Below are positions 59 through 51,742 of a stretch of DNA of 64,000 nucleotides, one piece after another (position 1 is the first letter of the stretch; each line of letters begins with the position of its first letter). The notes under the pieces were generated by a model that was given only the letters and a program-made list of their open reading frames with translations, did not search any database and had not been told where the DNA came from. The position numbers and the translations under genes were made by a program. Origin of the DNA: Planctomycetaceae bacterium (GTDB taxonomy: Bacteria > Planctomycetota > Planctomycetia > Planctomycetales > Planctomycetaceae); assembly GCA_947476295.1 (NCBI GenBank), contig CANJQC010000006.1, forward strand, positions 1-64,000. The letters run 5' to 3'.

Positions 59-126
59 TAGAACACTAATCTGCACTAATCTTCGCTAATCCGGATTAGT
101 GAAGATCAGCGCAGATTAGTGTTCTA
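59..126. repeat. Near-perfect 68-bp palindrome (34-nt arms, 3 mismatches, no loop)
   Basis: TAGAACACTAATCTGCACTAATCTTCGCTAATCC followed directly by GGATTAGTGAAGATCAGCGCAGATTAGTGTTCTA. Confidence 0.9.
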
Positions 127-265
127 AATTCCTGAATAAAACCTTCGCACATAGAATCCGTTAGAGTCAGCAAAGTCCGGAAAATTTCCCCAGACGCACT
201 CAAATATGTCCCGCACGCCCATAGCCCTGTCCGAATGCCGTAAAACTAGGGACGCACGGCAATAG

Positions 266-2674
266 TTACGGCCCAGCAGATGTCTGGGTGGCTTCTGCGG
301 GACTTGCGGCTTTTGGATCCACTGTGTCCACCACGATAATCTCAATAATAAAAGTCCCACCTACACCGCCGCCAACAGCATTTTCGGAAAATCCTGTTTG
401 CCCGTTTGCTCCACCTGTCTGTATGACAACATCCATTGTGCGACGATGGCCGTTTGGCAAAGCTCTAACGCCTTCAATCCACCACAAACCCTTCGCCTGA
501 TCCGGGCGGCTGTAGCCGCTGGTTCGGCCCTCATAGTGGTTCGTCAGATCTTCGATGTCGCGTTTCTTTTGCGGCGTAAAGGTTGTGCGAGTGTAATAGA
601 CTTGCGTTGCTGCCGGAATTGCATCCTTAGCAGGTTCACTAGGTCCCCCTGGAAACTGCATCATTACCGATACTTCGGCGGTCGCATTCTTATGCAGCTT
701 GACCGGCAGCGTGTCGGTGTGCTGAATCATGCTGCCAGAATTTCGTCTCAATTCGTCGCGGAGAACCAGCACCAAACTTTCGGTGGCAGACGTCCACGAA
801 TCCATGATTCCCGGCGTTTCTTTCAACGGTCGAGTCCTTGGCAGTGATTTCAGAATTACGAGCATCCCGGGATCATGCACATCGGCAAACAACCCTGAAC
901 CTTTGAGCCCGTCCGATCCGGATGGATACAATCGCAAAAACGCTGAGCAAATCGCTTGTCGCACTTCGGCAACGGGAATTGTCGATGCAAGCAGAATCAC
1001 ATCGGACGCTGTAGACAGGTCGGTTGCCTTTTCTAACTGATTCACAATCGCAGCGACGGCCTTTGGGCTCCATAAAAAGCTGGCTCCCTTTGCCACAACC
1101 TCCGGTTCCATCGTTACTTTCGGCAGCAACGACGTCGCGGTAACCGCAGCGTTGCCACCAAGTGCGTTGATGCCGACTGGGCTGATGGCCACTGGGGTCA
1201 TACCCGAATCGTCTTCATCGTCACCACCACGCCTCAATCTAAAAATCGGTCTGGCCGGCAGACCTGATCCAGTGGCCACTCCTGAAACACCGCTAATTCC
1301 GCCGGGGTTTGCGGCAGGAAGCAGTGCGGTTTCTCCAAAGCCCGTGAGCTTATCCATTTGAGTCGCCGAGACTGCGGCAAGCATCCGCATGCACGCGATT
1401 CGGCTTTCCGGAGGGATCGGTGTTGCATTGTCCAGAAATGCCATCATGACCGGCTGAATCACGTTGGGATTTGAATCCATGTTTTGCATGAGACGTTCGA
1501 CCACAATTTCACAGTTCATCACGGCAGGCAATGGAGTCTTCACTGTCCCAGCAACGATTCCAAACACTGATTGCCACGCATCCTGTGAGTTGTTTGCGAT
1601 CAGGCCATCCACGACACGTTCCACCAACGCCCTGTCCGTCAACTGACCGCCGCCTGGTGGCGTATTTGCACCGAGCGCGTTGCCGCCAGCCGGATAGCCA
1701 GCCGGATAGCCAGCCGGATAGCCTGACGGATAGCCTGACGGATAGCCTGACGGCGTTGTGCCTTCCACATTTTGGTCAGGCAAATCATCGTTCTGGTCTT
1801 CTCTCTTCTTTCTTGACCTGCCACCCGACGCTGGGCCCGAAAGGTCTTCGATGCGGCCCGGAACTCCGCCGGCAATCGCGCTCACTCCGGCGCCTTGCGG
1901 CATGTACGTCACCGCTGCCTCCAGAATCATGGCCGTGACACTATCGACAGCGCTCGGCAACTCCATCACTCCGCTATTGTGATTCCTGTCGATGGATTTT
2001 CGCAACGAACTCTGTGGGGTGATGGATGGTGCCGGTGTAGCAATCGAACCCGGTGCAGCTCCGGCGGGCGCGGGGCTTGGCGGCGTTCCGTCGGCCTTTG
2101 TTTGAACAGGCGTTGCCGACGGATCGAGCAGAGTTGTCAGCAACACCGCTACGCCAGCATCGCCCGGTGCCGACTTCACCTTAAAGTCAATTGCGTCCAG
2201 AATTCTCGGGTCATGTTCACGAGCAGCCGACAAGAAATCTTCATCAGTCCATGCATCAAAGCTGTCTGGTCGAGCGGATTTGGCTGGCAACTGTGCGGCC
2301 TGCTGAATACTACCGACAGGAATACCACCCAAAAGAGGGGGCGCGCCAGAATCGTCAATATCGCCTGAACGTATTCTGAAACCGCCGGGCGGGGCGACTG
2401 GCGGCGCGATATTCTCAGTCGCTACAGGCGGCGGCGCATCTGTTTCGTCGGCATCATGCTTGCCTGCACTTTTTGGCGCAGCATCAACAACGGGCATCGC
2501 GTCAGGAACAGGCATTTCCGGCGTGGCAGCAGGCGACGAGTCTCCCGAAGTTCCGGCATCACTGGTCGCCGGTTCCTCTCCGCCGCCACAGCCAGCCAAC
2601 GCGACAAGGCAGCAAACGCCAATCGCGGCTAAAATACTGCGACGCATCGGACCCAACTGATCTGACAGACTCAT
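266..2674 (-). CDS. Putative lipoprotein of unknown function with Gly-Tyr-Pro tandem repeat
   Basis: ORF; likely start MSLSDQLGPMRRSILAAIGVCCLVALAGCGGG (lipobox LAGC); the 99 residues upstream in the ORF look non-coding. Confidence 0.75.
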   Translation of the reverse strand: MSLSDQLGPMRRSILAAIGVCCLVALAGCGGGEEPATSDAGTSGDSSPAATPEMPVPDAMPVVDAAPKSAGKHDADETDAPPPVATENIAPPVAPPGGFRIRSGDIDDSGAPPLLGGIPVGSIQQAAQLPAKSARPDSFDAWTDEDFLSAAREHDPRILDAIDFKVKSAPGDAGVAVLLTTLLDPSATPVQTKADGTPPSPAPAGAAPGSIATPAPSITPQSSLRKSIDRNHNSGVMELPSAVDSVTAMILEAAVTYMPQGAGVSAIAGGVPGRIEDLSGPASGGRSRKKREDQNDDLPDQNVEGTTPSGYPSGYPSGYPAGYPAGYPAGGNALGANTPPGGGQLTDRALVERVVDGLIANNSQDAWQSVFGIVAGTVKTPLPAVMNCEIVVERLMQNMDSNPNVIQPVMMAFLDNATPIPPESRIACMRMLAAVSATQMDKLTGFGETALLPAANPGGISGVSGVATGSGLPARPIFRLRRGGDDEDDSGMTPVAISPVGINALGGNAAVTATSLLPKVTMEPEVVAKGASFLWSPKAVAAIVNQLEKATDLSTASDVILLASTIPVAEVRQAICSAFLRLYPSGSDGLKGSGLFADVHDPGMLVILKSLPRTRPLKETPGIMDSWTSATESLVLVLRDELRRNSGSMIQHTDTLPVKLHKNATAEVSVMMQFPGGPSEPAKDAIPAATQVYYTRTTFTPQKKRDIEDLTNHYEGRTSGYSRPDQAKGLWWIEGVRALPNGHRRTMDVVIQTGGANGQTGFSENAVGGGVGGTFIIEIIVVDTVDPKAASPAEATQTSAGP
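1687..1752. repeat. 12-bp tandem repeat (CCAGCCGGATAG / CCTGACGGATAG), about 5.5 copies
   Basis: Direct reading; encodes GYPSGYPSGYPAGYPAGYPAGG in the lipoprotein. Confidence 0.9.
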
Positions 2675-3219
2675 CTGAACGACTCCGCGTGCGTCTACAG
2701 CCACCCCGGGAAAATCCCCTGATTTTTGCGGCAACTGGCGACTGGCCGACTTGTTCAGATTATCACGCGCGGTTGCCCGCTTGCAAGCTGCTCCCCGCAA
2801 TTCGTCATTTCGATGCGAAACTGTGAATCCTCGGCTGCAGTTCAGCTTTGTTGGAGTGTCACGACAATTTTGCCACGACCTTGTTGCTGCGACATACCTT
2901 TTGTCAAAAACGAGCCGCAAGTGTCGTACGGAGCAGACAGCCCCCTCTCCGCGGAACAAAACCCATCCCATTTTCGGAAGGCAGGTATAAGAGTTGCATC
3001 AATTCAGAAAATTTTAAATCAACAGCCCGCTGGCGTGGAGCCTAAAGGTGTGTGTGAGAAAAACACCTCGATCGGTCGTAAAACATGCCACGGGAATTCC
3101 CGTTGGCCGATCGACCGAGTTACCGTACACCCACTGCGTCACTGTGCCGGAGGGCTTACGCCCCTCGCCCGCCAGGTTTTGCAGAACCAACAATCCACTT
3201 AACGTGTCACACTGAGACG

Positions 3220-6200
3220 ATGTCTACTCTCCGGGAAATTGAACAGTCTATTTCGCTCGCCATGGAGGCGGATCAGTTTTCGCTGCGCAAATTGTTGCGG
3301 ACCGTGAAGGATTCGGAGAAGTCCGGCAAGCCGTTTGATCGTACGCTGGATAAGCTGCAAGGACTGCTGCAGAAGTCACTTCAGCGACGCGAACAACGGG
3401 CAGTATGGCAGCCTCGACTGGACTGGGACGAAGAGCTTCCCGTTGTCGCGCGTAAGCAGGAGATCATCGATGCGATTCGTGATCACCAGGTGATCGTACT
3501 CTGCGGCGAAACGGGCTCAGGAAAATCGACGCAGTTGCCGAAGATCCTGATCGAAATGGGACGCGGACTCTCGGGAGTCATCGGACACACTCAGCCGCGT
3601 CGTATTGCAGCTCGATCGGTCGCTGCGCGGCTGGCGGAAGAAATGAACTGCCGACTCGGGCAGGAAGTTGGTTTTCGCATTCGCTTTACGGACAGCAGCG
3701 GGCCTAACACGCGCGTGCGTCTGATGACCGACGGAATCCTGCTGGCGGAAACTCAGACGGATCGTTTTCTTGATCAATACGACACGATCATCATCGACGA
3801 AGCGCACGAGCGATCTTTGAACATCGACTTCCTGCTGGGGTATCTCAAACGTCTGCTGCCTAAGCGGCGCGATCTGAAGGTGATCATCACATCGGCGACG
3901 ATTGATGCCGCGCGGTTTGCCGACCATTTTGGGCAATTGTGCCCCGACACTTCGTGGCGGGAACTTAACTTCGGTGCAACGAACGTCGCCCCATCTGGAG
4001 CAACTATTGAAGGTGGGCAGGATCGAAGTATGACGCAATCCCGCCACGGACTGTCGGGGCACATTCAGCCAGCTCCGGTGCTGCAGATTTCGGGGCGCAT
4101 GTATCCGGTCGATATTCGGTATCGACCGCTGGACGATCCCGATGCCGTAATGGGAGAAGACGACAACCGCCAAATGCGCGACTGGCTCGATGGCGTCACC
4201 GATGCCGTGGAAGAAGTCACGGCAAATGACTCCGGACACATCCTTGTCTTCCTGCCAACCGAACGTGACATTCGCGAAGCCGCAAAGGTCCTCGGCGGAC
4301 GACGATTTCGCGGCGACACGCCACAAATGCCGACTGAGATCGTCCCGCTGTTCGGACGACTGTCGATGGCCGATCAGACGAAGGTCTTTTCTCCGTATGG
4401 GCATCGGCGGATCGTGCTCGCGACCAACGTTGCCGAATCGTCACTCACCGTGCCAGGTATCCGTTATGTCGTCGATACAGGAACGGCCCGCATCAGTCGC
4501 TATTCGGCACGATCCCGCATGCAGCGCCTGCCCATTGAGCCGGTTTCTCAGGCGTCAGCCAATCAGCGAGCCGGGCGTTGCGGACGTGTGGGCCCCGGCA
4601 TCTGCATTCGTCTGTACAGCCAGGAAGACTTCAACGGCCGCGAAGCATTTACCGCTCCGGAGATTCAGCGGACAAATCTCGCAGCCGTGATTCTTCGTAC
4701 GATCAATTTGCGACTTGGAAATATCGAAGAATTTCCGTTCCTTGATCCGCCGCGTTCGACCACAGTGCGGGAAGGCTACAAGACGCTCGAAGAACTTGGA
4801 GCCATCACGCCCGAAGGTGAGATGACCGAGATCGGTCGCCGCATGGCAATGCTGCCCGTCGATCCGCGCATCAGCCGCATGATTCTGGCCGCCGTCGATG
4901 AACACGCACTGCCGGAAGTTCTCGCCATCGCCGCATTGCTGGAGAGTCAGGATCCGCGCGAACGCCCGATTGAAAAACAGCAGGCGGCTGATGAGGCTCA
5001 TAGGAAATTCTACAACCGCGATTCCGACTTTCTGACAATTCTAAATCTGTGGGATGCATGGCACGACAAACAGAAGACGGTTTCGCACAGTCAGGTCCGC
5101 AAATGGTGCCAGCAGAATTTTCTTTCATACATGCGGATGCGGGAATGGGTGGATGTGCATGCGCAGCTGAAGGACTTGCTGGCGGAAAGCGATGATCCGG
5201 CGATTGCAAAAGCCGCAAAGGCGCTGCATGAAAGGCACCGAGGTGAGCGGCAGGGCGTCAGCCCTCCGAGCAAAGCGCAGAACCCGAACGACCAAAAACG
5301 AAACACCAACGAGAAAAATCAACCCAACTCGCCGCAGAAGAACAAGACATCGCAGAAGAACAGCGCACTCGGAGGGCTGACGCCCTGCCGCTCGCCGAAC
5401 GAGACTCGCCACAACGACTTTGCAGCAACTCACAAAGCTCTGATGACCGGCCTGCTGGCCAATATCGGTTGCCAGACACCGAACGGCGATTTCATTGGAG
5501 CCGGCGGAAACAATCTTGCGATCTGGCCAGGTTCAGCACTCGCCCCCAAAGGCGCGAAGTGGTTCGTTGCCGGCGAACTGGTTGAAACCAGCCGTCGATT
5601 TGCTAGGACCATCGCACGCATTCAGCCTGAATGGATCGAACCACTCGCCGGACACCTGATCACGCGAGAGTATTCGGAGCCGCACTGGGATCCGGTCGCG
5701 GGCAACATCATGGTCTTTGAAAAGGTCAGCCTCTGGGGACTGCCGATTGTCACACGGCGCAAGGTGACGTACGCGAAAGTCGATCCTGTGAAGTCGCGTG
5801 AGATGCTGATTCAGCACGGGCTGGTCGAGTTTGGTTTGCTGTTTGGGGATTCCGACACTGACGGCGATCCAGGCGAAGACTACGACGATGAAGAAGAACT
5901 GTTGTTGGGAGGTGCCACAAAAGTCCGCCCCGGCCGCAGCACGACATCGAACACGTCGGCGAAGCGGAAAGGCTGGGGGCATGAGTTTCCGTTTCTCAAG
6001 CACAACCACGATGTGCTGGAACAGCTCAAGGACCTCCAGGCTCGCACGCGATCGCATCATCTGATTCCGGGCGACGAAACACTGTTCGATTTTTACGCAG
6101 CGCAGATTCCCGAAGAATGCAGTGACCGGGATCGCCTGCGACGCTGGTTTCAGCGAACCGTGACTCGTAATGCCAGGCTGCTGCAATTCGACATCAACCA

Positions 6201-7632
6201 GTTTGCTGATGAAGCGCATCGCTTTGAACAAGCGGCCATGTTTCCTGAATCCTCGCAGTTCGGCGCCATGCATTTGCCGCTGTCGTATCAGCTCGATCCG
6301 GGTTGCGATGCCGACGGAGTGACTGTCACCGTTCCAGTCGAGGGACTCGGTCAACTCACCGACACGCGACTGGAATGGCTGGTACCCGGGCTGCTCGAAC
6401 AGAAAGTGCTGGCACTGATTCGCGCGTTACCAAAGAACCTGCGTCGTCATTTTGTACCAGCGCCTGACACGGCCAAACTGGTTTACTCTGACCTAGAATT
6501 TGGCAAAGGTGACTTATTGACTGGCGTCGCGTCACGACTGTCGCAACTCGGCGGTGAACGGTTCGATTCGCGTGAGTTTGATTTGAGCACGATCGCGGAT
6601 CATCTGAAGTTTAATATCTGCGTCGTTGACGATCAGCGTAAGAAGATCATCGAAGGCCGCGAGTTGAAAGACTTGCGAGCCACCCTGATTCAAAGATCAC
6701 AGGCGGCCTTCGCTTCCGCAGAAAAGTCTGCGGCCGTGAGTGGCCCGTCGCCGGAGGAAGCCAAATGGACGCGAACGGGATTCAAGGCGTGGGATTGGTT
6801 CGACATTCCGGAACACATCGAAATCAAACGCGCGGGAATGTTACTGCGTTCATTTCCCACGCTGCGTGACGACGGTGAAACGGTTGGTCTGATGCTGTGC
6901 CAGACTCCTGAAGAGGCATCGCGGATTCTTCGCAAGGGGTTGCAAAAGCTGATTCTGATCGCCGAACGAAAGCGAATCCTTATTCAGATCGGCAACATGC
7001 CACAGATTGGCCAGGTGAAACTGCTTTCGTCGTCGATCAAAGGGCTGGAGCTGATGAACCATCTGTCGCTGCTGATGGTGGAACGTGCCTGGCTGTCCGA
7101 TCAACCGCTGGCGCGAACGAAAGGAGCGTTCGACAGAACTCTTCAGCGTGGCCGCGAACGACTGGGCGTCATCGCGCAGGAATTCGTGCAGTTCATGCCG
7201 CATCTGTTTCAGCAGTACCATGAAACTCGCCGAACGCTTGACCAAACGCGTGGCCCCGGCTGGGATCATTTGTTGAACAGCATGAAGACGCAACTGACCG
7301 CTCTCGTGCATCCGGCATTTCTGATTGAAACGCCGTGGCCGTGGCTGATCCAGTACCCGCGTTATTTCATGGGCATCCGCCAGCGTCTTCAGCGATTGTC
7401 ATCCGGCGGTTTGAAAACTGAGCAATCGATCGAAAGCGAATTCGCGCCGTGGCTGGCGCGTTATGAGCAAACTCTTAAAGACCATCAGCGTCAACACCGC
7501 ATTGACCCGATGCTGACACACTACCGCTGGATGCTGGAAGAATTCCGCATCCAGATGTTCGCCCAAAAACTAGGCACTGCCATCAGCGTGTCTGCGGCAA
7601 AGCTCGAAGAACAATGGGCGAGGATTTTGTAG
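3220..7632 (+). CDS. hrpA: ATP-dependent RNA helicase HrpA (DEAH box), with two in-frame palindromic insertions
   Basis: GETGSGKSTQLPK, DEAHERS, SATIDAARF, QRAGRCGRVGPG motifs; HrpA-type C-terminal region; start MSTLREIEQ. Confidence 0.93.
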   Translation: MSTLREIEQSISLAMEADQFSLRKLLRTVKDSEKSGKPFDRTLDKLQGLLQKSLQRREQRAVWQPRLDWDEELPVVARKQEIIDAIRDHQVIVLCGETGSGKSTQLPKILIEMGRGLSGVIGHTQPRRIAARSVAARLAEEMNCRLGQEVGFRIRFTDSSGPNTRVRLMTDGILLAETQTDRFLDQYDTIIIDEAHERSLNIDFLLGYLKRLLPKRRDLKVIITSATIDAARFADHFGQLCPDTSWRELNFGATNVAPSGATIEGGQDRSMTQSRHGLSGHIQPAPVLQISGRMYPVDIRYRPLDDPDAVMGEDDNRQMRDWLDGVTDAVEEVTANDSGHILVFLPTERDIREAAKVLGGRRFRGDTPQMPTEIVPLFGRLSMADQTKVFSPYGHRRIVLATNVAESSLTVPGIRYVVDTGTARISRYSARSRMQRLPIEPVSQASANQRAGRCGRVGPGICIRLYSQEDFNGREAFTAPEIQRTNLAAVILRTINLRLGNIEEFPFLDPPRSTTVREGYKTLEELGAITPEGEMTEIGRRMAMLPVDPRISRMILAAVDEHALPEVLAIAALLESQDPRERPIEKQQAADEAHRKFYNRDSDFLTILNLWDAWHDKQKTVSHSQVRKWCQQNFLSYMRMREWVDVHAQLKDLLAESDDPAIAKAAKALHERHRGERQGVSPPSKAQNPNDQKRNTNEKNQPNSPQKNKTSQKNSALGGLTPCRSPNETRHNDFAATHKALMTGLLANIGCQTPNGDFIGAGGNNLAIWPGSALAPKGAKWFVAGELVETSRRFARTIARIQPEWIEPLAGHLITREYSEPHWDPVAGNIMVFEKVSLWGLPIVTRRKVTYAKVDPVKSREMLIQHGLVEFGLLFGDSDTDGDPGEDYDDEEELLLGGATKVRPGRSTTSNTSAKRKGWGHEFPFLKHNHDVLEQLKDLQARTRSHHLIPGDETLFDFYAAQIPEECSDRDRLRRWFQRTVTRNARLLQFDINQFADEAHRFEQAAMFPESSQFGAMHLPLSYQLDPGCDADGVTVTVPVEGLGQLTDTRLEWLVPGLLEQKVLALIRALPKNLRRHFVPAPDTAKLVYSDLEFGKGDLLTGVASRLSQLGGERFDSREFDLSTIADHLKFNICVVDDQRKKIIEGRELKDLRATLIQRSQAAFASAEKSAAVSGPSPEEAKWTRTGFKAWDWFDIPEHIEIKRAGMLLRSFPTLRDDGETVGLMLCQTPEEASRILRKGLQKLILIAERKRILIQIGNMPQIGQVKLLSSSIKGLELMNHLSLLMVERAWLSDQPLARTKGAFDRTLQRGRERLGVIAQEFVQFMPHLFQQYHETRRTLDQTRGPGWDHLLNSMKTQLTALVHPAFLIETPWPWLIQYPRYFMGIRQRLQRLSSGGLKTEQSIESEFAPWLARYEQTLKDHQRQHRIDPMLTHYRWMLEEFRIQMFAQKLGTAISVSAAKLEEQWARIL
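3939..4062. repeat. Inverted-repeat element inside hrpA (24-nt arms, 2 mismatches)
   Basis: GTGCCCCGACACTTCGTGGCGGGA (3939-3962) and TCCCGCCACGGACTGTCGGGGCAC (4039-4062). Confidence 0.88.
5242..5396. repeat. Inverted-repeat element inside hrpA (29-nt arms, 1 mismatch)
   Basis: GGTGAGCGGCAGGGCGTCAGCCCTCCGAG (5242-5270) and CTCGGAGGGCTGACGCCCTGCCGCTCGCC (5368-5396). Confidence 0.92.
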
Positions 7633-7921
7633 CGATGCAAATCAGTCGGCAACCCGGGAAGCATTAGCTCCCTGACTCTGCGATTCAATTCCACAGGCAC
7701 TAAAGCAACTTCCCGAGAAGCGATGAAAGACGATCTCCGGACGCCGTCTTAATGCTGAATCAACGGATGTGGGCTGTAGTCTGCATGCCTGCACCTGAAC
7801 GGAGTACTGCTTGCAATACGTCAGACTTTCTGTCATCGTGGCTAGCCTAAAACGACTCCTGACCCGCTGAGGTGCGCTTTGACTTTGGCTCGTTTTTTCC
7901 CGACGACGAATCCTTCCTTCC

Positions 7922-8896
7922 ATGAGTGCATTGCAACACAAAAAAGTTGACACTCGAGTTGTTGTCGAGACGCCTGAGGGCGCAGATTTTCAATTCGTAA
8001 TTGCTGGCCCTGGAAAGCGTGTCATTGCATGGCTTATCGACAGGCTCATCCAGGCCGGAATCATTACCCTTGTGGGGATCCTGAAGCTTTTCCTGTTGCC
8101 ATTTGGTGAAGCGGGCGCCGGACTGGGTGTCGGCGGAACCCTGATCATTTCTTTTCTGCTCGACTGGTTTTACTTCAGTCTGTTCGAAGCGTACTGGAAT
8201 GGTCAAACACCCGGCAAGCGGGCTCAGGGGCTTCGTGTGGTCAGAACGAACGGCACACCGATCGATGCCTCCAGCGCCATCGGCAGAAACTTTCTGCGTG
8301 CGGCCGACATGCTTCCGTTCTTCTACACCATCGGTATGATCTCGATGCTGATGACACGCCGTTTGCAGCGGCTGGGTGATCTGGTGTTCGACACCATGGT
8401 CATTGACGAACGCCGCGAATGGATCAGCCGAGCAGGAGGACTCACCGCCAACATTGAAGCCATTCCACGTTCTGAGTGCCCGCGACGCTTCAGTGTTCCT
8501 GAACGCACATTGGCGGTTGTCGAACGGCTGTTCGAATCAGATCGTATTATTTCGGAAGCACGACGCGAAGAGATTGCTCGACCTTTGAGCGAAGCACTGC
8601 GAAAACGACTGGGATACGTCGATCCGCAGCCGGACCCGCACAATCCGCATATATTTTTTCGCACGCAGGGTTTTCGGCAGACGTTGTTCCTGCTGCGAGT
8701 CCTAAAGACTTTCGCTGAAAATCCTGAAGGCACAAAGTTCGCGGCGAAAGACACAGGCGATAAGCGTCCGACCTCTGTGGCTGCGAGCCGCAAGCAACTC
8801 CTTGCCGCGAAAACAGACGACTTTGTCACCTCGGAGCTTGCCAACTTTCTGGCGGATGATGCCGCAGACAGAGGAAGGGCTCGTCGTGAACCGTGA
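7922..8896 (+). CDS. RDD family membrane protein
   Basis: PGKRVIAWLIDRLIQ...GQTPGKRAQGLRVVRTNGTPI RDD-type signature and TM segments. Confidence 0.85.
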   Translation: MSALQHKKVDTRVVVETPEGADFQFVIAGPGKRVIAWLIDRLIQAGIITLVGILKLFLLPFGEAGAGLGVGGTLIISFLLDWFYFSLFEAYWNGQTPGKRAQGLRVVRTNGTPIDASSAIGRNFLRAADMLPFFYTIGMISMLMTRRLQRLGDLVFDTMVIDERREWISRAGGLTANIEAIPRSECPRRFSVPERTLAVVERLFESDRIISEARREEIARPLSEALRKRLGYVDPQPDPHNPHIFFRTQGFRQTLFLLRVLKTFAENPEGTKFAAKDTGDKRPTSVAASRKQLLAAKTDDFVTSELANFLADDAADRGRARREP

Positions 8897-10704: not shown

Positions 10705-11696
10705 AACGAGGGAGTTCAGCTGGACAGTGTGAGATTTCACGCAGCTCGGTTTCTCCGAGACGGATGGTTATCGCGTTTTGCGCGGCTTTGACTCTCGGAG
10801 AGACTCGACTACGTGAGTCGCCACAATTGGCTTGCCTGGTGGTCATTCTGGTAATGATCCTGTTGATGGTGTCCGGATCGTCAGTGGATGCTGCTGCCGT
10901 GCAGTCCGGGCCGATCGACGGCGATCAGATTGATCAAGTCGGCGATCAGGTGATGGACCGCAATGAATTTCGTTCGGTGCGACGCACGGTGCTGGAGAAA
11001 TTGCCGGAGTCGGACGTTGATAAGGGCTTTCTGGGCGGCGCACTGCAATGGGTCGGGGACAAGCTCGGTGACGTCTTTGGCGCGATTGGCAATTTCTTTC
11101 GCTGGCTGTTCAGTGGTTTCAGCGGACCCGGAAGTACACGAGCCCCTGCGCAGCCTTCAAATGCGCCATCGGGCAGCTTCGACTGGAGTTTTGGCTTCGG
11201 TGGATTGGCCAACATGTTTGCCATCTCTGTCATCGTAGTCATTGTGCTGTTGCTGATCGTCATCGCCGCGATGATTGTGAAAACGATCGATGCAAAGAAA
11301 CGCAATCGCGATGGTCTGTTGTCGGATTCGGAAGACATGTTGTCCGACGTCACCGCGCCTCCGGGTGAATTGGCAGCTTCAACATACGAATCCCGCGCGA
11401 GGCAGTTTGCATCGACCGGAAACTACCGTGGAGCAATTCGTGAATTGCTGCTGGGCAGTATGAGCTGGATTGAGCGTGCCGGATTGATCCGATATCGAAG
11501 GGGACTCACGAACCGGGATTACCTGCGTTCCGTCTGGCGACGCGCGGATAAGCGTGAAGGATATTTGACGACCGCATCTCACTTTGAACTTGTGTACTTT
11601 GGACGACGAAGTGCGACGGCGGAAATGTTTGAATTGTGTCTGACCAGTTTTCAGGGAGCCTTCCATGAAGAAGAAACGCCGACTGCTGCGGTCTGA
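10701..11696 (+). CDS. DUF4129 domain-containing protein
   Basis: C-terminal YRGAIRELLLGSMSWIERAGLIRYRRGLTNRDYLR pattern; single TM; ATGA overlap with the upstream gene. Confidence 0.8.
   Translation: MKRGSSAGQCEISRSSVSPRRMVIAFCAALTLGETRLRESPQLACLVVILVMILLMVSGSSVDAAAVQSGPIDGDQIDQVGDQVMDRNEFRSVRRTVLEKLPESDVDKGFLGGALQWVGDKLGDVFGAIGNFFRWLFSGFSGPGSTRAPAQPSNAPSGSFDWSFGFGGLANMFAISVIVVIVLLLIVIAAMIVKTIDAKKRNRDGLLSDSEDMLSDVTAPPGELAASTYESRARQFASTGNYRGAIRELLLGSMSWIERAGLIRYRRGLTNRDYLRSVWRRADKREGYLTTASHFELVYFGRRSATAEMFELCLTSFQGAFHEEETPTAAV
10740..10813. repeat. Diverged inverted repeat in the N-terminal coding region of the DUF4129 gene
   Basis: cgcagctcggtttctccgagac ... gactctcggagagactcgactacg (imperfect arms). 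Confidence 0.5.
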
Positions 11697-16745: not shown

Positions 16746-16757
16746 ACGGTCATTTCC

Positions 16758-20045: not shown

Positions 20046-20074
20046 GGCGAGCGGCAGGGCGTCAGCCCTCCGAG
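20046..20074. repeat. Solo 29-nt arm identical to the second hrpA palindromic element arm
   Basis: GGCGAGCGGCAGGGCGTCAGCCCTCCGAG, exact reverse complement of 5368-5396. Confidence 0.9.
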
Positions 20075-20248
20075 TGATCCCCGCAACAATCGTCGATCTT
20101 TGACAGACCACATTTTTTGTCAATCACGCCATTTCGCTCAGTGCTAATGCAAACAAGTTTGGACACATTCGACGTGTCAATCGTATACTTGGGCTGGGGA
20201 ATCCAGCGCTGGTTACGCCCCTCGAACTTCTTAATGAGGACATCGTCG

Positions 20249-23339: not shown

Positions 23340-23340
23340 A

Positions 23341-23414
23341 GGCTATCCGAAAAGGGGTCTGACCCCCTCCGGCAAGACACGCCTCCCAAGGGTCAGACAC
23401 CTTTTCGAATAGCC
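23341..23414. repeat. Intergenic inverted repeat (25-nt arms, 2 mismatches)
   Basis: GGCTATCCGAAAAGGGGTCTGACCC ... GGGTCAGACACCTTTTCGAATAGCC. Confidence 0.92.
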
Positions 23415-25857: not shown

Positions 25858-29748
<3,891 letters not shown>

Positions 29749-30097: not shown

Positions 30098-30164
30098 GTA
30101 GCCGGATTCGTGAGAATTCGGAGGCTGGCCATGAATCAACCCGAAGTCTCACGACTTCGGCTAC
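30098..30164. repeat. Intergenic inverted repeat between metH and nuoD
   Basis: GTAGCCGGATTCGTGAGAATTCGG ... CCGAAGTCTCACGACTTCGGCTAC. Confidence 0.8.
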
Positions 30165-39836: not shown

Positions 39837-39898
39837 AGTAACCCGAAGCGTCAGCGAGGAATGGGGAGTTCGAGCCCTCGCTGACGCTTCGGGTTACT
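39837..39898. repeat. Perfect inverted repeat (23-nt arms)
   Basis: AGTAACCCGAAGCGTCAGCGAGG ... CCTCGCTGACGCTTCGGGTTACT. Confidence 0.95.
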
Positions 39899-39951
39899 GT
39901 CAATTTCGACCGCGTGAGGCATAGTATCACTGAATTTTTACAGAACGAGCC

Positions 39952-41853: not shown

Positions 41854-42036
41854 CTGAAGCGGAGCCTGAACATTCCATGCAGGCCATGTCTTCAGCTACG
41901 CGACGATTGACCTTCAACGCAGGGAAACTACGATTCCCGCGTACGACTATTATATATTGACCATGTTTTCCGACACCGGCCGGTCGGGAACGACATGTGA
42001 AAACGATCGATTGCAGACTTAGAGGGAGTTACAAGA

Positions 42037-42980: not shown

Positions 42981-43019
42981 AGGGAACCTGCCGTTACAAT
43001 CATTCAGGGAATAACACCT

Positions 43020-43613: not shown

Positions 43614-43769
43614 TGAAGGGAAACCAAAAACAGAGAGCAAGGTACAAATGGCATAGCAACGCGCAATCTTGCGCTGCGAACCGCCAGAATCGACCAGAAG
43701 TCGATCGGGCATTCACGACTGAGCCAGCTTGGTGCGGCACGCCCGTCATATTCGGCATAATCGCGATTG

Positions 43770-44861
43770 TCAGGAGGCACTTCTGACGACATCCGTCATC
43801 GCTTCGAGCACTCGGTCGATCTCCGAATCCGTTCCGATTGTGATTCGCAGGCCATCCAGAGTTCCGCCGTCCGGCAGAGCATCTGGAAATTGCATGTAGC
43901 GAATCAGAATTTTTCGCTGTTTGAGCTGCTCGTAGAGTTTCCGATGTTGTCCCGTCGCGTGCGTCGTCCACAGAAAGTTTGCTTCGCTCGGGTGGACTCG
44001 AAAACCATACGTTGGCAACGCCGCAGCTAGGCGATCTCGAGTTGCAAGAATCTTTGCACGATTCTGCAGCATCCAGTCCTGATCTTCCAAGGCGGCGGTC
44101 GCTGCCGCGATCGCAACAGTATCGCAGTTGTAGCTGTCCTTCACTTTCTGCATACCGCTGATCAGATCCGGATGAGCGATCGCAAATCCGAATCGAATGC
44201 CTGCCAGGCTGTACGACTTGCTGAACGTCCGAGTCACGATCATGCGACCATCGAAAAGATCGTTCCGAAGCAACTCACCGCGATGAGGCACGCGGCAGAA
44301 ATCTCCGTACGCTTCATCCAGTACCAATACGCCGCGATCGGGCAGCAGCTGTCTGAGTTGTTCCGCAGACCAAACGTTGCCGGTCGGAGAGTTCGGACTG
44401 GGAACATAAAACACGCGGACACTTTTTCGAAGTCGCGCGGCATCAGCAGGATTCCATTGCCAGTCGGAATTCAGGTTTAGTCGCACGACGCTGCAGCCCT
44501 GAATCTGCGCGAGCGATTCGTAGAGTACGTAGCTGGGATACGGATACGCGATCGTCTCGTCAGCGTCACAGAACGATCGAGTGATCACAGTGAGATTTTC
44601 GTCGCTGCCGTTGGCTGGCAGAATCCAGTCGGGATCGACATCGAACAGTTTTGCGGCAACACTGCGAAATCCTGTCGCGTACGGATCGGGATAGACGTTC
44701 AATCGTCCTTCCGCCGCGCGGCGAATCGCCTCGACGACTTTGGGAGACGGTGGATACGGATTTTCGTTCGTATTCAGCTTAACCCAGCCGCCATCCTGAG
44801 GCTGCTCACCAGGTGCATAGCCCGCCATGCGATCAACAGCCGGACGAAAGATCGAAGTCAT
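43770..44861 (-). CDS. hisC: Histidinol-phosphate aminotransferase
   Basis: LNTNENPYPPSPKVVEAI...NGSDENLTVI...VLDEAYGDF...TRTFSKSYSLAGIRFGFA. Confidence 0.95.
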   Translation of the reverse strand: MTSIFRPAVDRMAGYAPGEQPQDGGWVKLNTNENPYPPSPKVVEAIRRAAEGRLNVYPDPYATGFRSVAAKLFDVDPDWILPANGSDENLTVITRSFCDADETIAYPYPSYVLYESLAQIQGCSVVRLNLNSDWQWNPADAARLRKSVRVFYVPSPNSPTGNVWSAEQLRQLLPDRGVLVLDEAYGDFCRVPHRGELLRNDLFDGRMIVTRTFSKSYSLAGIRFGFAIAHPDLISGMQKVKDSYNCDTVAIAAATAALEDQDWMLQNRAKILATRDRLAAALPTYGFRVHPSEANFLWTTHATGQHRKLYEQLKQRKILIRYMQFPDALPDGGTLDGLRITIGTDSEIDRVLEAMTDVVRSAS

Positions 44862-45025
44862 GGAGCGAGTTTCGACGAAAGACGTTGAACAGACGGAACA
44901 GACGCACTACGGCCGTTTTACCCTTGGTTGCCGAAAGTATAGCGAACCGTCCTCTGCACGCTGGTCTTCGCGGCCGAAGCGGTAAAAATAGGAATACAAT
45001 GCCGGACTGGCGATGATGCAGACAC

Positions 45026-45319
45026 ATGAATCAGCATACTGTTCAGGACAGGAATTCGTCCGTGGAAGATTTCATCGGAAAAAATGTCGTGGTCGATGTA
45101 GAATCGCCGTTTGTCTATCTCGGTCGCCTGCACATGATTCTGGACAAGACGCTCGTCCTGAAAGGCGTTGATGTCCACGACCTGCGCGATTCCGCAACGA
45201 CCCGGGAAGTCTACGTCCGCGAATCTCGTGTTCATGGTATCCAGCCCAACCGCAAAACCGTCTATATCCGACTCGACAAAGTCGTCAGCATTTCACCGCT
45301 GGACGATGTGATTGAGTAG
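45026..45319 (+). CDS. Small hypothetical protein with Sm/LSM-like strand pattern
   Basis: 97-aa ORF: DFIGKNVVVDVESPFVYLGRLHMILDKTLVLKGVDVHDL...KTVYIRLDKVVSISPLDDV. Confidence 0.7.
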   Translation: MNQHTVQDRNSSVEDFIGKNVVVDVESPFVYLGRLHMILDKTLVLKGVDVHDLRDSATTREVYVRESRVHGIQPNRKTVYIRLDKVVSISPLDDVIE

Positions 45320-45570
45320 GTTATTGGGTAGGACTGGACCGACAAATTGGCCAGTCATTTTAAATCTTGCGAAATTGATGTGTCGAAGCAGACTCACGAA
45401 GAACTCCCCTATTGACTGCTTTGGGGCGGAGTTTGGAGTCGCACACGGCGTGAGATTGGACCTGAGTTTCAACATTATGCTCTCTGCGTGCCATTCAGGC
45501 AACGTGAGTTTGCCCTCGTGGAAATGAACTACTAACTGATTGTGCATGTTTCGTGAGTGAACCAACGAAA

Positions 45571-45613
45571 GAGCCTGCGGCATCACAGATGCCGCAGGCT
45601 CAGGTCTTTTTTC
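45571..45613 (+). terminator. Rho-independent-like hairpin, possibly bidirectional, between the LSM-like gene and sat
   Basis: Perfect 14-nt stem GAGCCTGCGGCATC-ACA-GATGCCGCAGGCTC followed by AGGTCTTTTTT on +. Confidence 0.75.
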
Positions 45614-45647
45614 GCTTGACTCTGCGAGCCAGCCGCTCGCAAAGAGA

Positions 45648-46907
45648 TCAGCCGACTTTCATCGCTGTTCCCAGAATCTGCGAAGTGCTTGGACGCATAA
45701 TGCGGCCGTCCACGAGTTCGCCTTTCTGCAGAGTCGCGCGGATGTCTTTGCCGCTGATGGACCACGGCTTTTCGTCCTTGTGGCGTTCCATCAGATCGAC
45801 GCGACCGGCCGATTCGTAGTAGGCCGCAAAGCCAACATTCACGGTCTTGATCTTCAAGTCGCCGCCGAGCTTCTTGAAAATCTCCTGAGCGTCGAAGTCG
45901 CCCCAGATGGATTCACCATTGGCATAAGGAGCGTCGGCGTGCTTGCGTCCGATGACCAGATGCGTGTAGCCCATGTTCTGGCGATAGATGCCGTGCATCA
46001 CAGCTTCCTTTGGACCGCCGTAGAACATTTTGATGTCCAGGCCCAGCAGAACAACTCGATCCGGCACAGATTCCTTACGCGGCCCCCACAGACTGGCATC
46101 GCTGTCGCCATCACCCAGCGAGCGATCGGAGATCAGCTTTTCATAAGTCTGCATCCTGATCTCAGCGTTGACGTCGTCACCTTTGACTTCGCCGATGAGC
46201 GGATTCAAACAGGCGCCGGCATTCAGTCCCTGCTTCAACAGAGTTTCCAAACCGTAAACCAGTGCGTACTCATGCGCGCGATGCAGCGGGTTGCGGGTTT
46301 GAAACGCGACGACCGCTTCCCAGCCCTTGCCCGCCAGCAACTTGCGAACTTCGCGTGGCGTCAGTACGTACTTGCCGAACGATGGATTCTTTGGCTGCGG
46401 CAGCACTTTGATCTCGCCGCCAATCAGGTGTGAGTTCGCTGCTTCGCCTTTGATCACCATATCGGCACCTGGATGATCGATACGATCTGTCAGGTACACC
46501 GATCGCAGGTACTTCAACTTTGGCCAGGCGTATACGTCGTTGATTTCCAGTGTTGCAACGATGTCGCCGTTGGGGCCTGTCAAAGCAACCTTTTGGCCAG
46601 CCTTAAGTGTCTTCGCAACGTCTGCCGTGATCGGGAATGCAATCGGGATCGTCCAAGCATACTTTTGTCCGTTGCTGACGACATAGCATTCGTCAAGAAC
46701 CTGATTGTAAACAGCCGAGTTCATTGGCCCGGTCAGTGGGCTGAGTGTTCCGTCGCCGAAGCGATAGACACTGGAGAGGTCAGCGGCAGAAACAGGTACT
46801 TGAGGCAGTGTTTTTGCTTCTGCCACAAACGCATCTTTGTCCTTTTCACCAACGGTGCAGCACACAGGTTCTGACAATCCACCATGCGGTGCGATCAGAT
46901 CGGCCAT
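45648..46907 (-). CDS. sat: Sulfate adenylyltransferase (ATP sulfurylase)
   Basis: [56 protein letters not shown]. Confidence 0.95.
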
Positions 46908-47402
46908 TTCAAAATGTTCCTTAGAAACTTGCAAATTCAAAGAAATCCGACGTATTTCGGTCAGAACTTCTGCCGAATCTCGCGATTCCACGGAACGTAA
47001 GGGAACGCAGAAAGCGAGTCAAGAAGTTCCTGGAAGCGAAACTTCGACAAGAACGGCTTATTTTCGACGCCGCATCAAAGGCGACACGCAGTGGAGAAGG
47101 CGGCTGACGTACGAAATGAACGCCCCGCTTAATCGCTGGGAAATGGGACTGTTTTCCGTTTAACCTTGTTTTCCGCACCCCCTCGCGGAGCGAGAGTTGT
47201 GGGGAAATCCAGTGGTTTGAATAATTTTATAACGTACGCTGCAGCAAAAAGTATGTCGTCAAACCCATCATCATCAGAAAAACCAGCGACTCCACTCGCT
47301 TCGGAGAATGCAGAAACAACGGACAGATTGCCAGCGGTCGCTTGAACCGGACTTGCATCTGCGATTTCTATCAAAACAGAAAGTCGGCCAGCATAGCAAT
47401 GG

Positions 47403-48146
47403 CTACTCGATCAACGGGCGTTGTCGTTTTGGATTCGTGCGGTGGAACGCATCAAATTCGGAGGGCAGCAGCGTGAGTAACTGTTCGATCGAAAGCGAAT
47501 GAAGATCCCATGTCAGATCCAGTTGACTGAGCACATCTGCAAAGCGGCGGGGGCTTCCGGGGCTTTTTGCGCTGAGTCCCGGGCGATTGCGGCCATTGGC
47601 AGCGTCATAATAGAGACGTGTGGCGACCCCTACAACGGCGTTGCAGGTGACGAGTGATGGTCGTGATGCAATCAAAGGCACAAGTGGGCAAGGTTGGGTC
47701 GGTAAACCACAGAGCAGCGACATGGCTCGCCTTGGATCGTCGCGATGAGCCCGATAGATCTGAAACGGACCAGCGAGAATGTGGCGGCATGTCTTTCGCG
47801 GGTTCTCCAAATCGGCCAGCCAGCGGTAGCGATCGCCTGGTTTCAATTGATCACGCACCACTGGGCACAGAGTTTCGAACCAATACAATGACAGCCAGCA
47901 CCAGAAGCCCGCATCCGTGCGTAACGTGGACGTATCCATGCGCAACATACGACTCAGGTGTTCCGCAATTTCTAGGCGGGAGCGAAACCGGCGCACTTCG
48001 GCCTCAATCTCCACGTCGATCGGTTCCGACGTTCCTGATTCCGTAAGCAAATCCAGTGGAGCGTCTGCCGAGGGATGATCTTTCAGCGATGCGAGAAACG
48101 CATCGAACTGATTGATCCCGGATTGTGTCAGTCGGCGAGCCAGCAT
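47403..48146 (-). CDS. Hypothetical protein, 247 aa
   Basis: Intact ORF; HLSRMLRMDTSTLRTDAGFWCWLSLYWFETLCP...ILAGPFQIYRAHRDD...SPRRFADVLSQLDLTWDLHSL; possibly DUF6339-like (unverified). Confidence 0.7.
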   Translation of the reverse strand: MLARRLTQSGINQFDAFLASLKDHPSADAPLDLLTESGTSEPIDVEIEAEVRRFRSRLEIAEHLSRMLRMDTSTLRTDAGFWCWLSLYWFETLCPVVRDQLKPGDRYRWLADLENPRKTCRHILAGPFQIYRAHRDDPRRAMSLLCGLPTQPCPLVPLIASRPSLVTCNAVVGVATRLYYDAANGRNRPGLSAKSPGSPRRFADVLSQLDLTWDLHSLSIEQLLTLLPSEFDAFHRTNPKRQRPLIE

Positions 48147-48212
48147 GATGAAGACAAAACTACTTAGCCGATTGGCCTCAAAAAAATTTGCAGCGACACT
48201 CTCAAATGGGCC

Positions 48213-50300
48213 TCAAAGCCAGATATACTTCTGCACAAATTCCACCACATCGCCAAAACACCAATAGGCCAGTGATGTTTTTCCGCAATACAAATGCACG
48301 GTCACTTCCACACCGATGCGCTGCGGTGGAAGTTCCTGTCCGGCGTTCGCTTCTGCGGTCAGTTCAAACGCCGTTCCCATTTCCGTATCGGTTGTCGAAC
48401 GAGTCGCCACTTTCGCGAGATGACACTGGAATTCTTTTTCCGGTTGCGACGCCAGCTTGAATTCCCCTTCAAGGTCCGGAGACTTGCCTTCAGTAATCAA
48501 TTGACGCTGAGCCCGCAACAGGTGTCCCATGCGTTTTTCTTCGACCAGCAGTTCCATATGCCACGGGCCGTCTTCATTCATAATATCGAAGAGATGGTCA
48601 CCTACTCGAACCGGACGATCTTCAAGGAGTTGTCGCAATTGAAAGTCGGGAATTCGTCCGTCGGCCTGAGCTTTAATGATCAGTTTTTCTTCCTTGCGTT
48701 TTTGCAGTTGAGCCAGCTGTCGCTCGGCAATGAAGCGGTCGCCCTGGATTCGTTGCTTTTCCACTTCGAGACGTTTGACGGTCGATGCCGCACTACCCTT
48801 CTGTTCGCCTTCTTCTGGTCGCTGCAGCAATTCTGTGGCGCGAATTTCTTCTTCTTTTGAACTCAGCATATTGCTCTGTTTTTCAATGGACGCTTTCGCC
48901 TCTTCGATCTGGCCATCCAGTTCATCGTTCTGCAGCACGATGAGAATGTCACCTTTTTTCACCAACTGACCAAGCGGAATTCGAATACCGTCGCGCGTAA
49001 TCAGACCGTCGTACGTCGCAAACACTGCGTGCTGTTCGACCGGCATCCATTTGCCTTCTGCCTTGACCGGGTACTCCAGCTTATACAGCGTCATGACCGC
49101 CACAAATCCGGCAATCGCCAACAGAACGGCCGCAGTAATCGCCAGCTTTCGCCCGCGAAACCACTCCGTACACTTGCCGATAAGTGTCCACAGATTCAAT
49201 CCAAAAATACGCCCATGCTGTCGAGCATTCCAGAGAGCCGCTCCGACGTGATCGGCTACTAATTCAGCTCGCTGTTCCAGTTGCGGCAAGGGTTCTGATT
49301 CTGCGATCTGTTCGATCACCAGACATCCCGTGGCTTTGAGTCGCTTCTTTCGTCGTTCGCGATCTTCTTCTTCGCCCTGCTTGCGGACCAGTGCTTCGTT
49401 TTCGAACATCGGAACGAGCATCACCATGCGGGAACCGCTCTCCTGCACAAACGCCGCCAGCGGTTCTTCAACCTGAGGTGCAAGCCCATCGACCTTGCCA
49501 GTGTAGACCAGCGTTTCACCCATTTCAATCACGCGCCGCGACAGCTTTCGCATGGCAACCACTAGGTTGGCTCGCGCGTTGACGCTGCTTTGTCCACTCA
49601 CGGCACAGATGCGAAAACTGCGTCCTTTGCGGATGGCCACGCTCACGCGATCGCATCCCAGCAACGCGCGACTGTCACTGGCCGCCGCATCGGCGACTTC
49701 CTGCTCCTGCAATGAACGCTGAAGACGCAGAGAGAATTGTTCAAAGTTCGTCCAGAACTGATTCTTAAGGTCCGCAGTATTCTCCGGATTGTGACGTCGG
49801 CCTTCCAGAAAGCGCGAAGCGTATCCGCACATCTGTTCCAGAAACTGCATGTATCCCGACTGTGCTTTGATCGGAACATCCGGACGCTGAAACAATTCAA
49901 CGACACCGACGCACTTCTTTTCTTTGTGAAGCGCAGACAGGACCAGAACGTGTTCCGTCGGAAGCTTTGCTTCACCGCCGTGAGTCAGCGTGCGGGCTTC
50001 GCCGGTCTGCATCACTTCAATCAGCAGCTTTTCGTTGAGTCCCATTGCGCCGGGTGTTTCGCGGAGACCGGTGTGCTCAAGATTCATCTGAGCTACCAGG
50101 TTCAGACGACCGGATTCGTCCAGCAACCAGACGACACCCGCGCGAGCTCCGACGGCTGTGACAACGCGCGTCATGAATTCCTGAAAGTACACCGGTGGGG
50201 GAAGTTCCTGCCCGGACATCTGCTCGATCTCGCGCGCCAGCTGCATCACGCGCTCGCGAACTTTTCGCAGGTTTTCGTCAGGTGGAACAGGTTCTGTCAT
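48213..50300 (-). CDS. GAF domain and HlyD-type membrane fusion (periplasmic adaptor) protein
   Basis: N-terminal GAF-like region (VVTAVGARAGVVWLLDESGRLNLVAQMNLEHTG), TM (LAITAAVLLAIAGFVAVMTLYKLEYPVKAEG), HlyD barrel/coiled coil (FATYDGLITRDGIRIPLGQLVKKGDILIVLQNDELDGQIEEAK). Confidence 0.87.
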   Translation of the reverse strand: MTEPVPPDENLRKVRERVMQLAREIEQMSGQELPPPVYFQEFMTRVVTAVGARAGVVWLLDESGRLNLVAQMNLEHTGLRETPGAMGLNEKLLIEVMQTGEARTLTHGGEAKLPTEHVLVLSALHKEKKCVGVVELFQRPDVPIKAQSGYMQFLEQMCGYASRFLEGRRHNPENTADLKNQFWTNFEQFSLRLQRSLQEQEVADAAASDSRALLGCDRVSVAIRKGRSFRICAVSGQSSVNARANLVVAMRKLSRRVIEMGETLVYTGKVDGLAPQVEEPLAAFVQESGSRMVMLVPMFENEALVRKQGEEEDRERRKKRLKATGCLVIEQIAESEPLPQLEQRAELVADHVGAALWNARQHGRIFGLNLWTLIGKCTEWFRGRKLAITAAVLLAIAGFVAVMTLYKLEYPVKAEGKWMPVEQHAVFATYDGLITRDGIRIPLGQLVKKGDILIVLQNDELDGQIEEAKASIEKQSNMLSSKEEEIRATELLQRPEEGEQKGSAASTVKRLEVEKQRIQGDRFIAERQLAQLQKRKEEKLIIKAQADGRIPDFQLRQLLEDRPVRVGDHLFDIMNEDGPWHMELLVEEKRMGHLLRAQRQLITEGKSPDLEGEFKLASQPEKEFQCHLAKVATRSTTDTEMGTAFELTAEANAGQELPPQRIGVEVTVHLYCGKTSLAYWCFGDVVEFVQKYIWL

Positions 50301-50758
50301 GTAGTCGCCCGCTATTTTCTTCAGGAACTTCGTATACTTATCCGAATGCTTGGTATTCGCAATGCGGAATGCTGTGATTGGGCGTGCAAAATCTCGACTT
50401 GTTTTGACGGGGTAAACCGACAACTCCAACAGACTTCGCCCTGCCTATCCGAAAACCCCGGATTGTTCATGTGTTCTGAAACGCGGTCAAGACCGGTGAT
50501 CGCCTTGCCTGCCTCAGTTTGACGCCGATTTCCGATTTCGCCACCGCGTGCGAGGAATAGGCAAAACTGGTAACCTCCCGGCGGCACTGGGCATTTCCGG
50601 ATTTCGCCAATAGCTGCGTAGTTTTTACAACTTGTGGCTGACCAAGACAGTATGTGACTTATATGACTTATGAGACTTATGACATCGGTTACGGAAATCG
50701 TTCACAGCGGATCGTCGCAGAATTTCAGCGGCCTGTCTCACTCTGCGATTACGATAAC

Positions 50759-51742
50759 GTGATCCGGACGACATTGATTTCTGTGTTGGGTCCGATTTTG
50801 ATCGTCTGCTGGTGTGCTGCGTCTGCGATTGCTGACGAAGCCACCGGCACCCCAAAAGAAGTTTGCGTGGTGGGGGATCCTTTGATTCGGGAAGCCAGCG
50901 GAGTTGCCGTCAGTCGCACAACAAAAGACGCAGTCTGGATGCATAACGATTCAGGTGACGTGCCGCGATTGTTTTTAGTTGGTCTGAATGGCACCACTCT
51001 GGGAATCGTGAATGTGAAGGGCGTCACGGCCATGGACTGGGAAGATATGTGTTCGTTCGAACTGGACGGTGAATCCTGGTTGTTGGTCGGAGACATCGGC
51101 GACAACGGCCGCGTACGCGGCGTAACGCCGTCACCTGGCGGGCGGGGCGGCATCAGTCCGGCGGTAAGAAACGCCAACGGCCGCTTACCCAACGCAGCGC
51201 CGCCGTGTCAGCTTCTGCTTCTGAAAGAGCCGAAAGTGAAACTCACCGGCCAGGCGAACCCCGACTTCGAATCAACCGTCGATGTTTGTCGTACGGTTGA
51301 GTTTCAATTTTCCGATGGTCCGCATGATTGTGAAAGTCTGGCTGTTGATACAGTATCACGCACAATTCTGCTCGTCACAAAGACCAGTCCCTTCAACAGC
51401 GCGTTGTACTCGTTACCACTGACTTTGACGAAGGGAAAAGAATCACTGAAGGCCGAGAGAATTGCTTCGCTGGGTGTCGCGTTTGCGACTGCAATGGATA
51501 TTTCCTCTGACGGTCATCGTCTGGCTATCGTCAACATGTTCAGTGGTGTCATGCTGACGCGCGAGGACCCGAAAAAAGAATCCTGGGCCGAGGCATCCCG
51601 CGGATCCATCACAGTGCTGACACTTCCAATTCGCAAACAGGGAGAATCCGTCTGCTTCACCGCCGACGGCAATTCCCTGCTGCTTAACAGCGAAGGCGCA
51701 TCACAGCCGCTGTGGCAAACTGAACTTGAATCTAGGCGTTAG
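50759..51742 (+). CDS. Secreted beta-propeller-like hypothetical protein with in-frame repeat insertion
   Basis: Signal VIRTTLISVLGPILIVCWCAASAIADEA (GTG start; track ORF starts at 50654); EASGVAVSRTTKDAVWMHNDSGDVPRLFLVGLNG, DWEDMCSFELDGESWLLVGDIGDN. Confidence 0.75.
   Translation: MIRTTLISVLGPILIVCWCAASAIADEATGTPKEVCVVGDPLIREASGVAVSRTTKDAVWMHNDSGDVPRLFLVGLNGTTLGIVNVKGVTAMDWEDMCSFELDGESWLLVGDIGDNGRVRGVTPSPGGRGGISPAVRNANGRLPNAAPPCQLLLLKEPKVKLTGQANPDFESTVDVCRTVEFQFSDGPHDCESLAVDTVSRTILLVTKTSPFNSALYSLPLTLTKGKESLKAERIASLGVAFATAMDISSDGHRLAIVNMFSGVMLTREDPKKESWAEASRGSITVLTLPIRKQGESVCFTADGNSLLLNSEGASQPLWQTELESRR
51108..51203. repeat. GC-rich palindromic segment inserted in the beta-propeller CDS
   Basis: Contains perfect palindrome GCCGCGTACGCGGC (51109-51122) plus GGCGTAACGCC and GGTAAG...CTTACC inverted repeats. 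Confidence 0.6.

What the first reader, a model, noticed from the sequence alone, without database searches (positions are those of the whole stretch)
59..51203. Window-wide set of palindromic element families, several coding: candidate planctomycete analogue of Rickettsia palindromic elements
At least eight sequence-distinct inverted-repeat elements (59-126, 3939-4062, 5242-5396, 10740-10813, 23341-23414, 26386-26504, 30098-30164, 39837-39898) plus solo arms occur in 64 kb with no transposase present. Some lie inside essential or housekeeping ORFs and keep frame. Protein-coding palindromic repeats are established in Rickettsia (RPE). A similar process here would be a mechanism for adding disordered linkers to proteins, and implies a trans-acting mobiliser.
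Basis: partly seen in the sequence, partly recalled or inferred. Interest (0 to 1): 0.85.

Follow-up and report, generated by a model that had tools for sequence, protein, structure and literature searches.

The report
REPIN palindromes, some inside essential genes
This planctomycete genome carries several families of small, jumping hairpin-shaped repeats (REPINs) next to the RAYT enzymes thought to move them, and a few have landed in frame inside housekeeping genes, where they become floppy protein linkers; the phenomenon is known in principle, but here it hits the same protein linkers again and again in related bacteria, and the hairpin arms stay nearly unchanged at the DNA level.

Summary
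Seven of the eight palindromes are far above chance. Six belong to multi-copy genome families and a seventh (59-126) has at least one sibling. The one at 10740-10813 is single-copy and weak. They are REPINs (inverted pairs of REP sequences). The window has no transposase, but the genome has 11 Y1/HUH transposase genes, 10 of them RAYT-like. Five are directly flanked by palindromes, including families found in this window (5242, 26386). RAYT-free sibling species carry about five times fewer palindromes. REPINs are strongly excluded from genes: 7 of 64 are intragenic in a 1.06 Mb sample that is 83% coding. The survivors are real. The window has two in an HrpA-like helicase and one in MetH. Others lie in IleS, PurL, MutL and a Cas4-Cas1 linker. 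They are in frame, fall in linkers or loops, and both inserts modelled are predicted disordered. In MetH homologues, unrelated palindromes hit the same linkers repeatedly. Intragenic REPs, and their link to Rickettsia RPEs, were published by Di Nocera et al. 2013, so this is a new member of a known kind. Unexpected: in MetH all 19 third-codon positions inside the arms are invariant in five species (69/289 in flanks), indicating conservation of the DNA itself.

The parts
59..126 (.). Intergenic near-perfect palindrome, CACTAATC-type family (F1)
   Evidence: near-identical sibling at L212:12333-12396
3085..7632 (+). HrpA-like DEAH helicase gene (DEAD, Helicase_C, HA2, OB_NTP_bind, DUF3418), carries two in-frame REPINs
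   Evidence: homologues
3938..4063 (.). REPIN of the GTGCCCCGACACTCCGTGGCGGG family (F2) in hrpA-like gene; about 126 nt / 42 codons absent from all relatives aligned; disordered loop
5245..5393 (.). REPIN of the CGTC-core family (F3) in the linker at aa ~719-772 of the hrpA-like gene; shared with sibling G001
20046..20076 (+). Solo F3 arm, intergenic
   Evidence: 31/31 match to the right arm at 5366-5396
10737..10816 (.). Weak, single-copy palindrome (F4), next to the start of ORF 10839-11693; not supported as a repeat family
23341..23414 (.). Intergenic palindrome with GGGGTCTGACCC core (F5), 3 palindromes in the genome
25858..29748 (-). metH, cobalamin-dependent methionine synthase
26386..26504 (.). 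GTAG-foot REPIN (F6) in frame in the activation-domain loop of MetH (aa ~1082-1121), replacing an ancestral loop of about 5 aa
30098..30164 (.). Intergenic GTAG-foot REPIN (F7) between metH and the complex I 49-kDa subunit gene; G012 has only about 85 nt here
39837..39898 (.). Intergenic perfect REPIN (F8), 46 arms in the genome

Best explanation
The palindromes are REPINs: inverted pairs of REP sequences that fold into a long hairpin in single-stranded DNA. Several families coexist in this Fuerstiella-like planctomycete. They are most likely copied and inserted in trans by RAYT (TnpA_REP, Y1/HUH) transposases encoded elsewhere in the genome, several of which sit between or beside REPINs of their own type (arrangement shown; mobilisation inferred). 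Most insertions into genes are eliminated. The rare survivors are in frame, lack stops, and lie in interdomain linkers or surface loops, where they encode hydrophilic disordered stretches of about 25-50 residues.
For: 64 palindromes against 1 expected in 1.06 Mb. 11 Y1_Tnp genes in the genome; of the ten scanned with NCBIfam, nine have REP_Tyr_transpos as best or only match and one is IS200. RAYT L008 lies among three F3-type REPINs, and a RAYT in sibling G001 (C9:31534-31761) lies between F3 REPINs. RAYTs L006 and L010 abut F6-type palindromes, L005 and L011 abut others. RAYT-free siblings: 5 palindromes/293 kb; RAYT-bearing siblings: 25/304 kb, p = 2e-4. Intragenic 7/64 versus 83% coding. 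Intragenic copies in metH, hrpA-like, ileS, purL, mutL, squalene-hopene cyclase, Cas4-Cas1. Insert absent from relatives. MetH: 15/17 palindromes in four linkers/loops that make up 9% of length. Inserts have pLDDT about 30-44 inside well-folded models.
Against: No transposition was observed. Most RAYT-like proteins score below NCBIfam's curated cut-off. F1, F2, F5 and F7 have no RAYT of their own identified. Two of the four MetH linker intervals were defined after seeing the hits. RAYT-free genomes seem to form one side of the genus, so the density contrast is not phylogenetically independent; the RAYT-bearing stretches were also chosen around hrpA and metH. The near-total DNA-level conservation of the arms is not predicted by simple neutral survival.
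Confidence: 0.85

Rival explanations
1. The intragenic REPIN arms do a job as nucleic acid (an mRNA or DNA hairpin inside the gene, for example pacing translation between domains or binding a protein), and this job, not mere tolerance, keeps them.
For: metH arms: 19/19 third codon positions invariant in five species versus 69/289 in flanks, p = 1e-11; fourfold sites 6/6 versus 11/113. hrpA 17/18, purL 19/20, DUF7133 21/21 third positions identical between G000 and G001. Arms more conserved than their own spacer, CMH p = 5e-10. In G004 and G005 the metH arm has essentially no other close genomic copy that could serve as conversion donor.
Against: G012 has eroded both metH arms (about 70% identity) and keeps an intact gene. 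G013 breaks pairs in the left arm. Three of four genes are single pairs of species. Gene conversion, or past donor pools now lost, is not excluded.
Confidence: 0.3
2. Arms look conserved because they are overwritten by other REP copies (ectopic gene conversion or repeated RAYT-driven insertion into existing REPs).
For: G000 has 13 and G001 has 5 F6 arms; the F3 pool has 94 arms in G000. The right F3 arm in hrpA differs between G000 and G001 exactly by switching between two common genomic variants. In DUF7133 the spacer is conserved too.
Against: G004 and G005 retain the metH arms with almost no donor sequences left. Spacers between the arms show shared descent in metH.
Confidence: 0.4
3. Element-specific MITEs moved by a different transposase (for example a DDE IS with terminal inverted repeats) rather than RAYT.
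For: F5 carries a GGGGTC-type core like the GGGGWSAS terminal repeats that Di Nocera et al. describe for TIR-flanked Y1 transposases; no RAYT was found next to F1 or F5.
Against: No clear target-site duplication at hrpA site 1; GTAG and CGGA feet and internal hairpins typical of REPs; RAYTs flanked by F3 and F6 types.
Confidence: 0.1
4. Chance inverted repeats or assembly artefacts.
For: 10740-10813 is single-copy and 8/200 shuffles fold as well.
Against: 64 versus 1 in null; the same element occurs in metH in five separately assembled genomes.
Confidence: 0.02

Closest known systems
REPIN/RAYT system (Bertels and Rainey 2011, PMC3116915; TnpA_REP, PMC6006769)
   Same: Inverted REP pairs, feet such as GTAG, several families per genome, Y1 transposase genes flanked by their own REPINs, scattered mostly between genes
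   Different: Several in-frame copies inside housekeeping genes; families F1, F2, F5, F7 lack an assigned RAYT here and F8 only a probable one
Intragenic GTAG and CGTC REPs (Di Nocera et al. 2013, PMC3733652)
   Same: REP dimers inside genes in frame, encoding 20-80 aa, in repair proteins, helicases and tRNA synthetases; linker tolerance proposed; planctomycetes listed among REP carriers
   Different: Here different, unrelated palindromes recur at the same linkers of one protein across species, and the arms are conserved at silent sites. The F3 core contains CGTC but in the hairpin loop region, not shown to be their terminal CGTC tag
Rickettsia palindromic elements (RPE; Ogata et al., as cited in PMC3733652)
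   Same: In-frame palindromic insertions in functional genes; RPE-4/6 are themselves classed as CGTC REPs
   Different: No sequence relationship tested; here mostly extragenic; RAYT genes present in the genome
Class 3 TnpA_Y1 with CnGA-foot structures (PMC6006769)
   Same: Planctomycete occurrence; F3 reads CGGA followed by a GGGC..GCCC hairpin; associated protein L008 has NHLH and W-T motifs
   Different: The Tyr-to-Gln spacing in L008 (YLRDQ) is one residue shorter than the published Y----Q signature

Membership tests
REPIN | Two REP sequences in inverted orientation forming a long hairpin | tested here: met
   for seven elements; 10740-10813 weak
REPIN | Multi-copy, dispersed in the genome | tested here: met
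   94, 46, 30, 13, 9, 6 arms; 10740 family has 1
REPIN | Conserved unpaired foot (GTAG or equivalent) plus internal REP hairpin | tested here: inconclusive
   GTAG foot in F6 and F7 and CGGA in F3 by reading the sequence; no clear foot assigned for F1, F2, F5, F8
REPIN | Cognate RAYT gene flanked by the same REPs | tested here: met
   F3 (L008; also sibling G001) and F6-type (L006, L010); F8-type near L011; not found for F1, F2, F5, F7
REPIN | Mobilised by RAYT | not testable with these tools
   only indirect: palindrome density follows RAYT presence
RAYT (TnpA_REP) | Y1_Tnp domain with HUH motif and catalytic Tyr | tested here: met
   Pfam; NHVH/NHLH and Y...NP in several; one of the ten scanned above the NCBIfam cut-off
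Rickettsia palindromic elements | In-frame palindromic insert in functional protein genes | tested here: met
Rickettsia palindromic elements | Sequence relationship to an RPE family | not tested
   RPE sequences were not fetched; organism is unrelated
Class 3 TnpA_Y1 | Y----Q signature | tested here: inconclusive
   L008 has YLRDQ, one residue shorter

The most novel reading that the evidence does not exclude
Arms of REPINs inside housekeeping genes are kept at the DNA level across species, silent sites included, so an intragenic REPIN is both a protein linker and a conserved nucleic-acid hairpin with its own function or maintenance process.
Probability: 0.3. Interest if true: 0.75.

Novelty: new member of a known kind. 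Interest (0 to 1): 0.52.

Why it matters
It shows a living route by which non-autonomous mobile DNA becomes protein sequence in essential enzymes, with species that carry the insert and species that do not. It makes two questions testable: whether REPIN-derived linkers are merely tolerated, and why the arms stay fixed at synonymous positions when the surrounding gene is close to saturation.

Tried and rejected
Rfam scan of the window: no hit, so not a known structured RNA. 10740-10813 as a repeat family: rejected. Independent repeated insertion as the reason for identical metH arms: less likely because spacers show shared descent. Arm-to-arm correction alone: would keep the arms alike but not frozen between species. 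Ogata et al. 2002 could not be read.

Full report
Observation. All eight inverted repeats exist at the stated places. In 1.06 Mb of the same genome (50 stretches of 20 kb plus the window) a palindrome scan gives 64 hits at score 15 or more against 1 in an order-2 Markov null. Seven of the eight window elements pass this scan and fold far better than shuffles (z -5.0 to -10.8); 10740-10813 is not convincing (z -2.1, one copy). Genome counts of arms with up to 3 mismatches are 94 (5242 family), 46 (39837), 30 (3939), 13 (26386), 9 (30098) and 6 (23341), with reversed-pattern controls of 0 or 1. 59-126 has one sibling in the sample. The genome is a 5.99 Mb draft of a planctomycete; its nearest named relatives are Planctomycetaceae and Fuerstiella assemblies.

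What they are. The elements are inverted pairs of REP units. Two families show the GTAG foot directly (26386, 30098). The F3 family (5242) reads CGGA plus a GGGC..GCCC hairpin on one strand. The genome has 11 Y1_Tnp genes. Ten were scanned with NCBIfam: nine have REP-associated tyrosine transposase as best or only match, though only one passes the curated cut-off, and one is IS200. L008 lies among three F3-type REPINs; L006 and L010 abut F6-type palindromes; L005 and L011 abut others. The four palindromes that overlap a gene edge in the sample all sit at Y1 transposase genes. In sibling G001 a Y1 gene at C9:31534-31761 again lies between F3 REPINs. Six sibling genomes have no Y1_Tnp match; four of them were sampled and gave 5 palindromes in 293 kb against 25 in 304 kb for RAYT-bearing siblings (p = 2e-4), although the two groups are probably not phylogenetically independent and the second set was chosen around hrpA and metH.

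Coding copies. By a simple codon-model gene caller, 83% of the sample is coding, yet only 7 of 64 palindromes are inside genes, three of them in this window. REPINs are therefore strongly kept out of genes. The intragenic ones are genuine. In MetH the conserved [19 protein letters not shown] loop is about 5 residues in most homologues, and E. coli has [22 protein letters not shown]. The F6 REPIN adds about 35-38 residues here and in G013, G015, G004 and G005, is eroded in G012, and unrelated inserts occupy the same loop in G001, G006 and G017. In the hrpA-like gene a 126-nt F2 REPIN is absent from every relative aligned; G001 has FGHIQPAP. Because G001's GGGCACATT matches the element's end, it may be an empty site or a deletion scar. 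G017 carries a different REP-like insert at the same loop. The F3 REPIN at 5242 is shared with G001 and partly eroded in G013 and G004. Elsewhere in the genome F6 lies in ileS between catalytic and anticodon domains, in purL and in a DUF7133 protein; F3 in the mutL linker and a squalene-hopene cyclase; F2 in the Cas4-Cas1 fusion linker, where the solved fusion has a gap. All four F6 copies read the left arm in the same hydrophilic frame (peptides [36 protein letters not shown]).

Same linkers, unrelated palindromes. Over 98 distinct MetH proteins, 15 of 17 palindromes lie in four linker or loop intervals that make up 9% of the length (p = 2e-14). Two of these intervals were set after inspection, and some rows share ancestry, so the p-value is optimistic. 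The sequences are unrelated (GTTGATCG, GGGCTGAG, CGTTGAGG, CGTC-core, GTAG types). AlphaFold models give pLDDT of about 30-44 for both inserts modelled and high confidence around them.

Arm conservation. In metH 19/19 third positions in the arms are invariant in five species against 69/289 in the flanks (p = 1e-11). Amino acids are no better conserved in the arms than in the flanks (13/19 versus 232/289), so the constraint is not on the protein. hrpA (17/18), purL (19/20) and DUF7133 (21/21) agree for G000 against G001; arms exceed their own spacers overall (CMH p = 5e-10), though in DUF7133 alone the spacer is as conserved as the arms. G004 and G005 have almost no other F6 copies, which argues against conversion from a present-day pool there. 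Cause unresolved.

Known or new. Di Nocera et al. 2013 described REPs inside genes in several phyla, equated RPE-4/6 with CGTC REPs, proposed linker tolerance and listed Planctomycetes. REPIN/RAYT is established. What I did not find in the held literature is repeated occupation of the same linkers by unrelated REPINs and silent-site conservation of intragenic arms; the library lacks most subscription journals.

Noticed in passing
L224:1249-1327 (G000 contig 14): REPIN in the linker of a Cas4-Cas1 fusion, absent from the solved Cas4/Cas1 fusion 7mi4.
   Followed up: partly
window 1685-1744: 12-bp tandem repeat (GCCAGCCGGATA, about 5 copies) inside the large minus-strand ORF 266-2971.
   Followed up: no
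genome sample L212-L261: Most abundant short palindrome arm seen is TGGACATTCATGTCCG, 40 copies per Mb, with no assigned transposase.
   Followed up: no
hrpA-like homologues, aa ~577 (L063, L066, L068, L079): A second linker expands to roughly 40-60 low-complexity residues in some siblings without a palindrome; possibly eroded inserts.
   Followed up: no
L183, L167 (metH of Verrucomicrobia and Acidobacteria MAGs): Long palindromes in MetH linkers outside Planctomycetes, so the pattern may be wider than this phylum.
   Followed up: no
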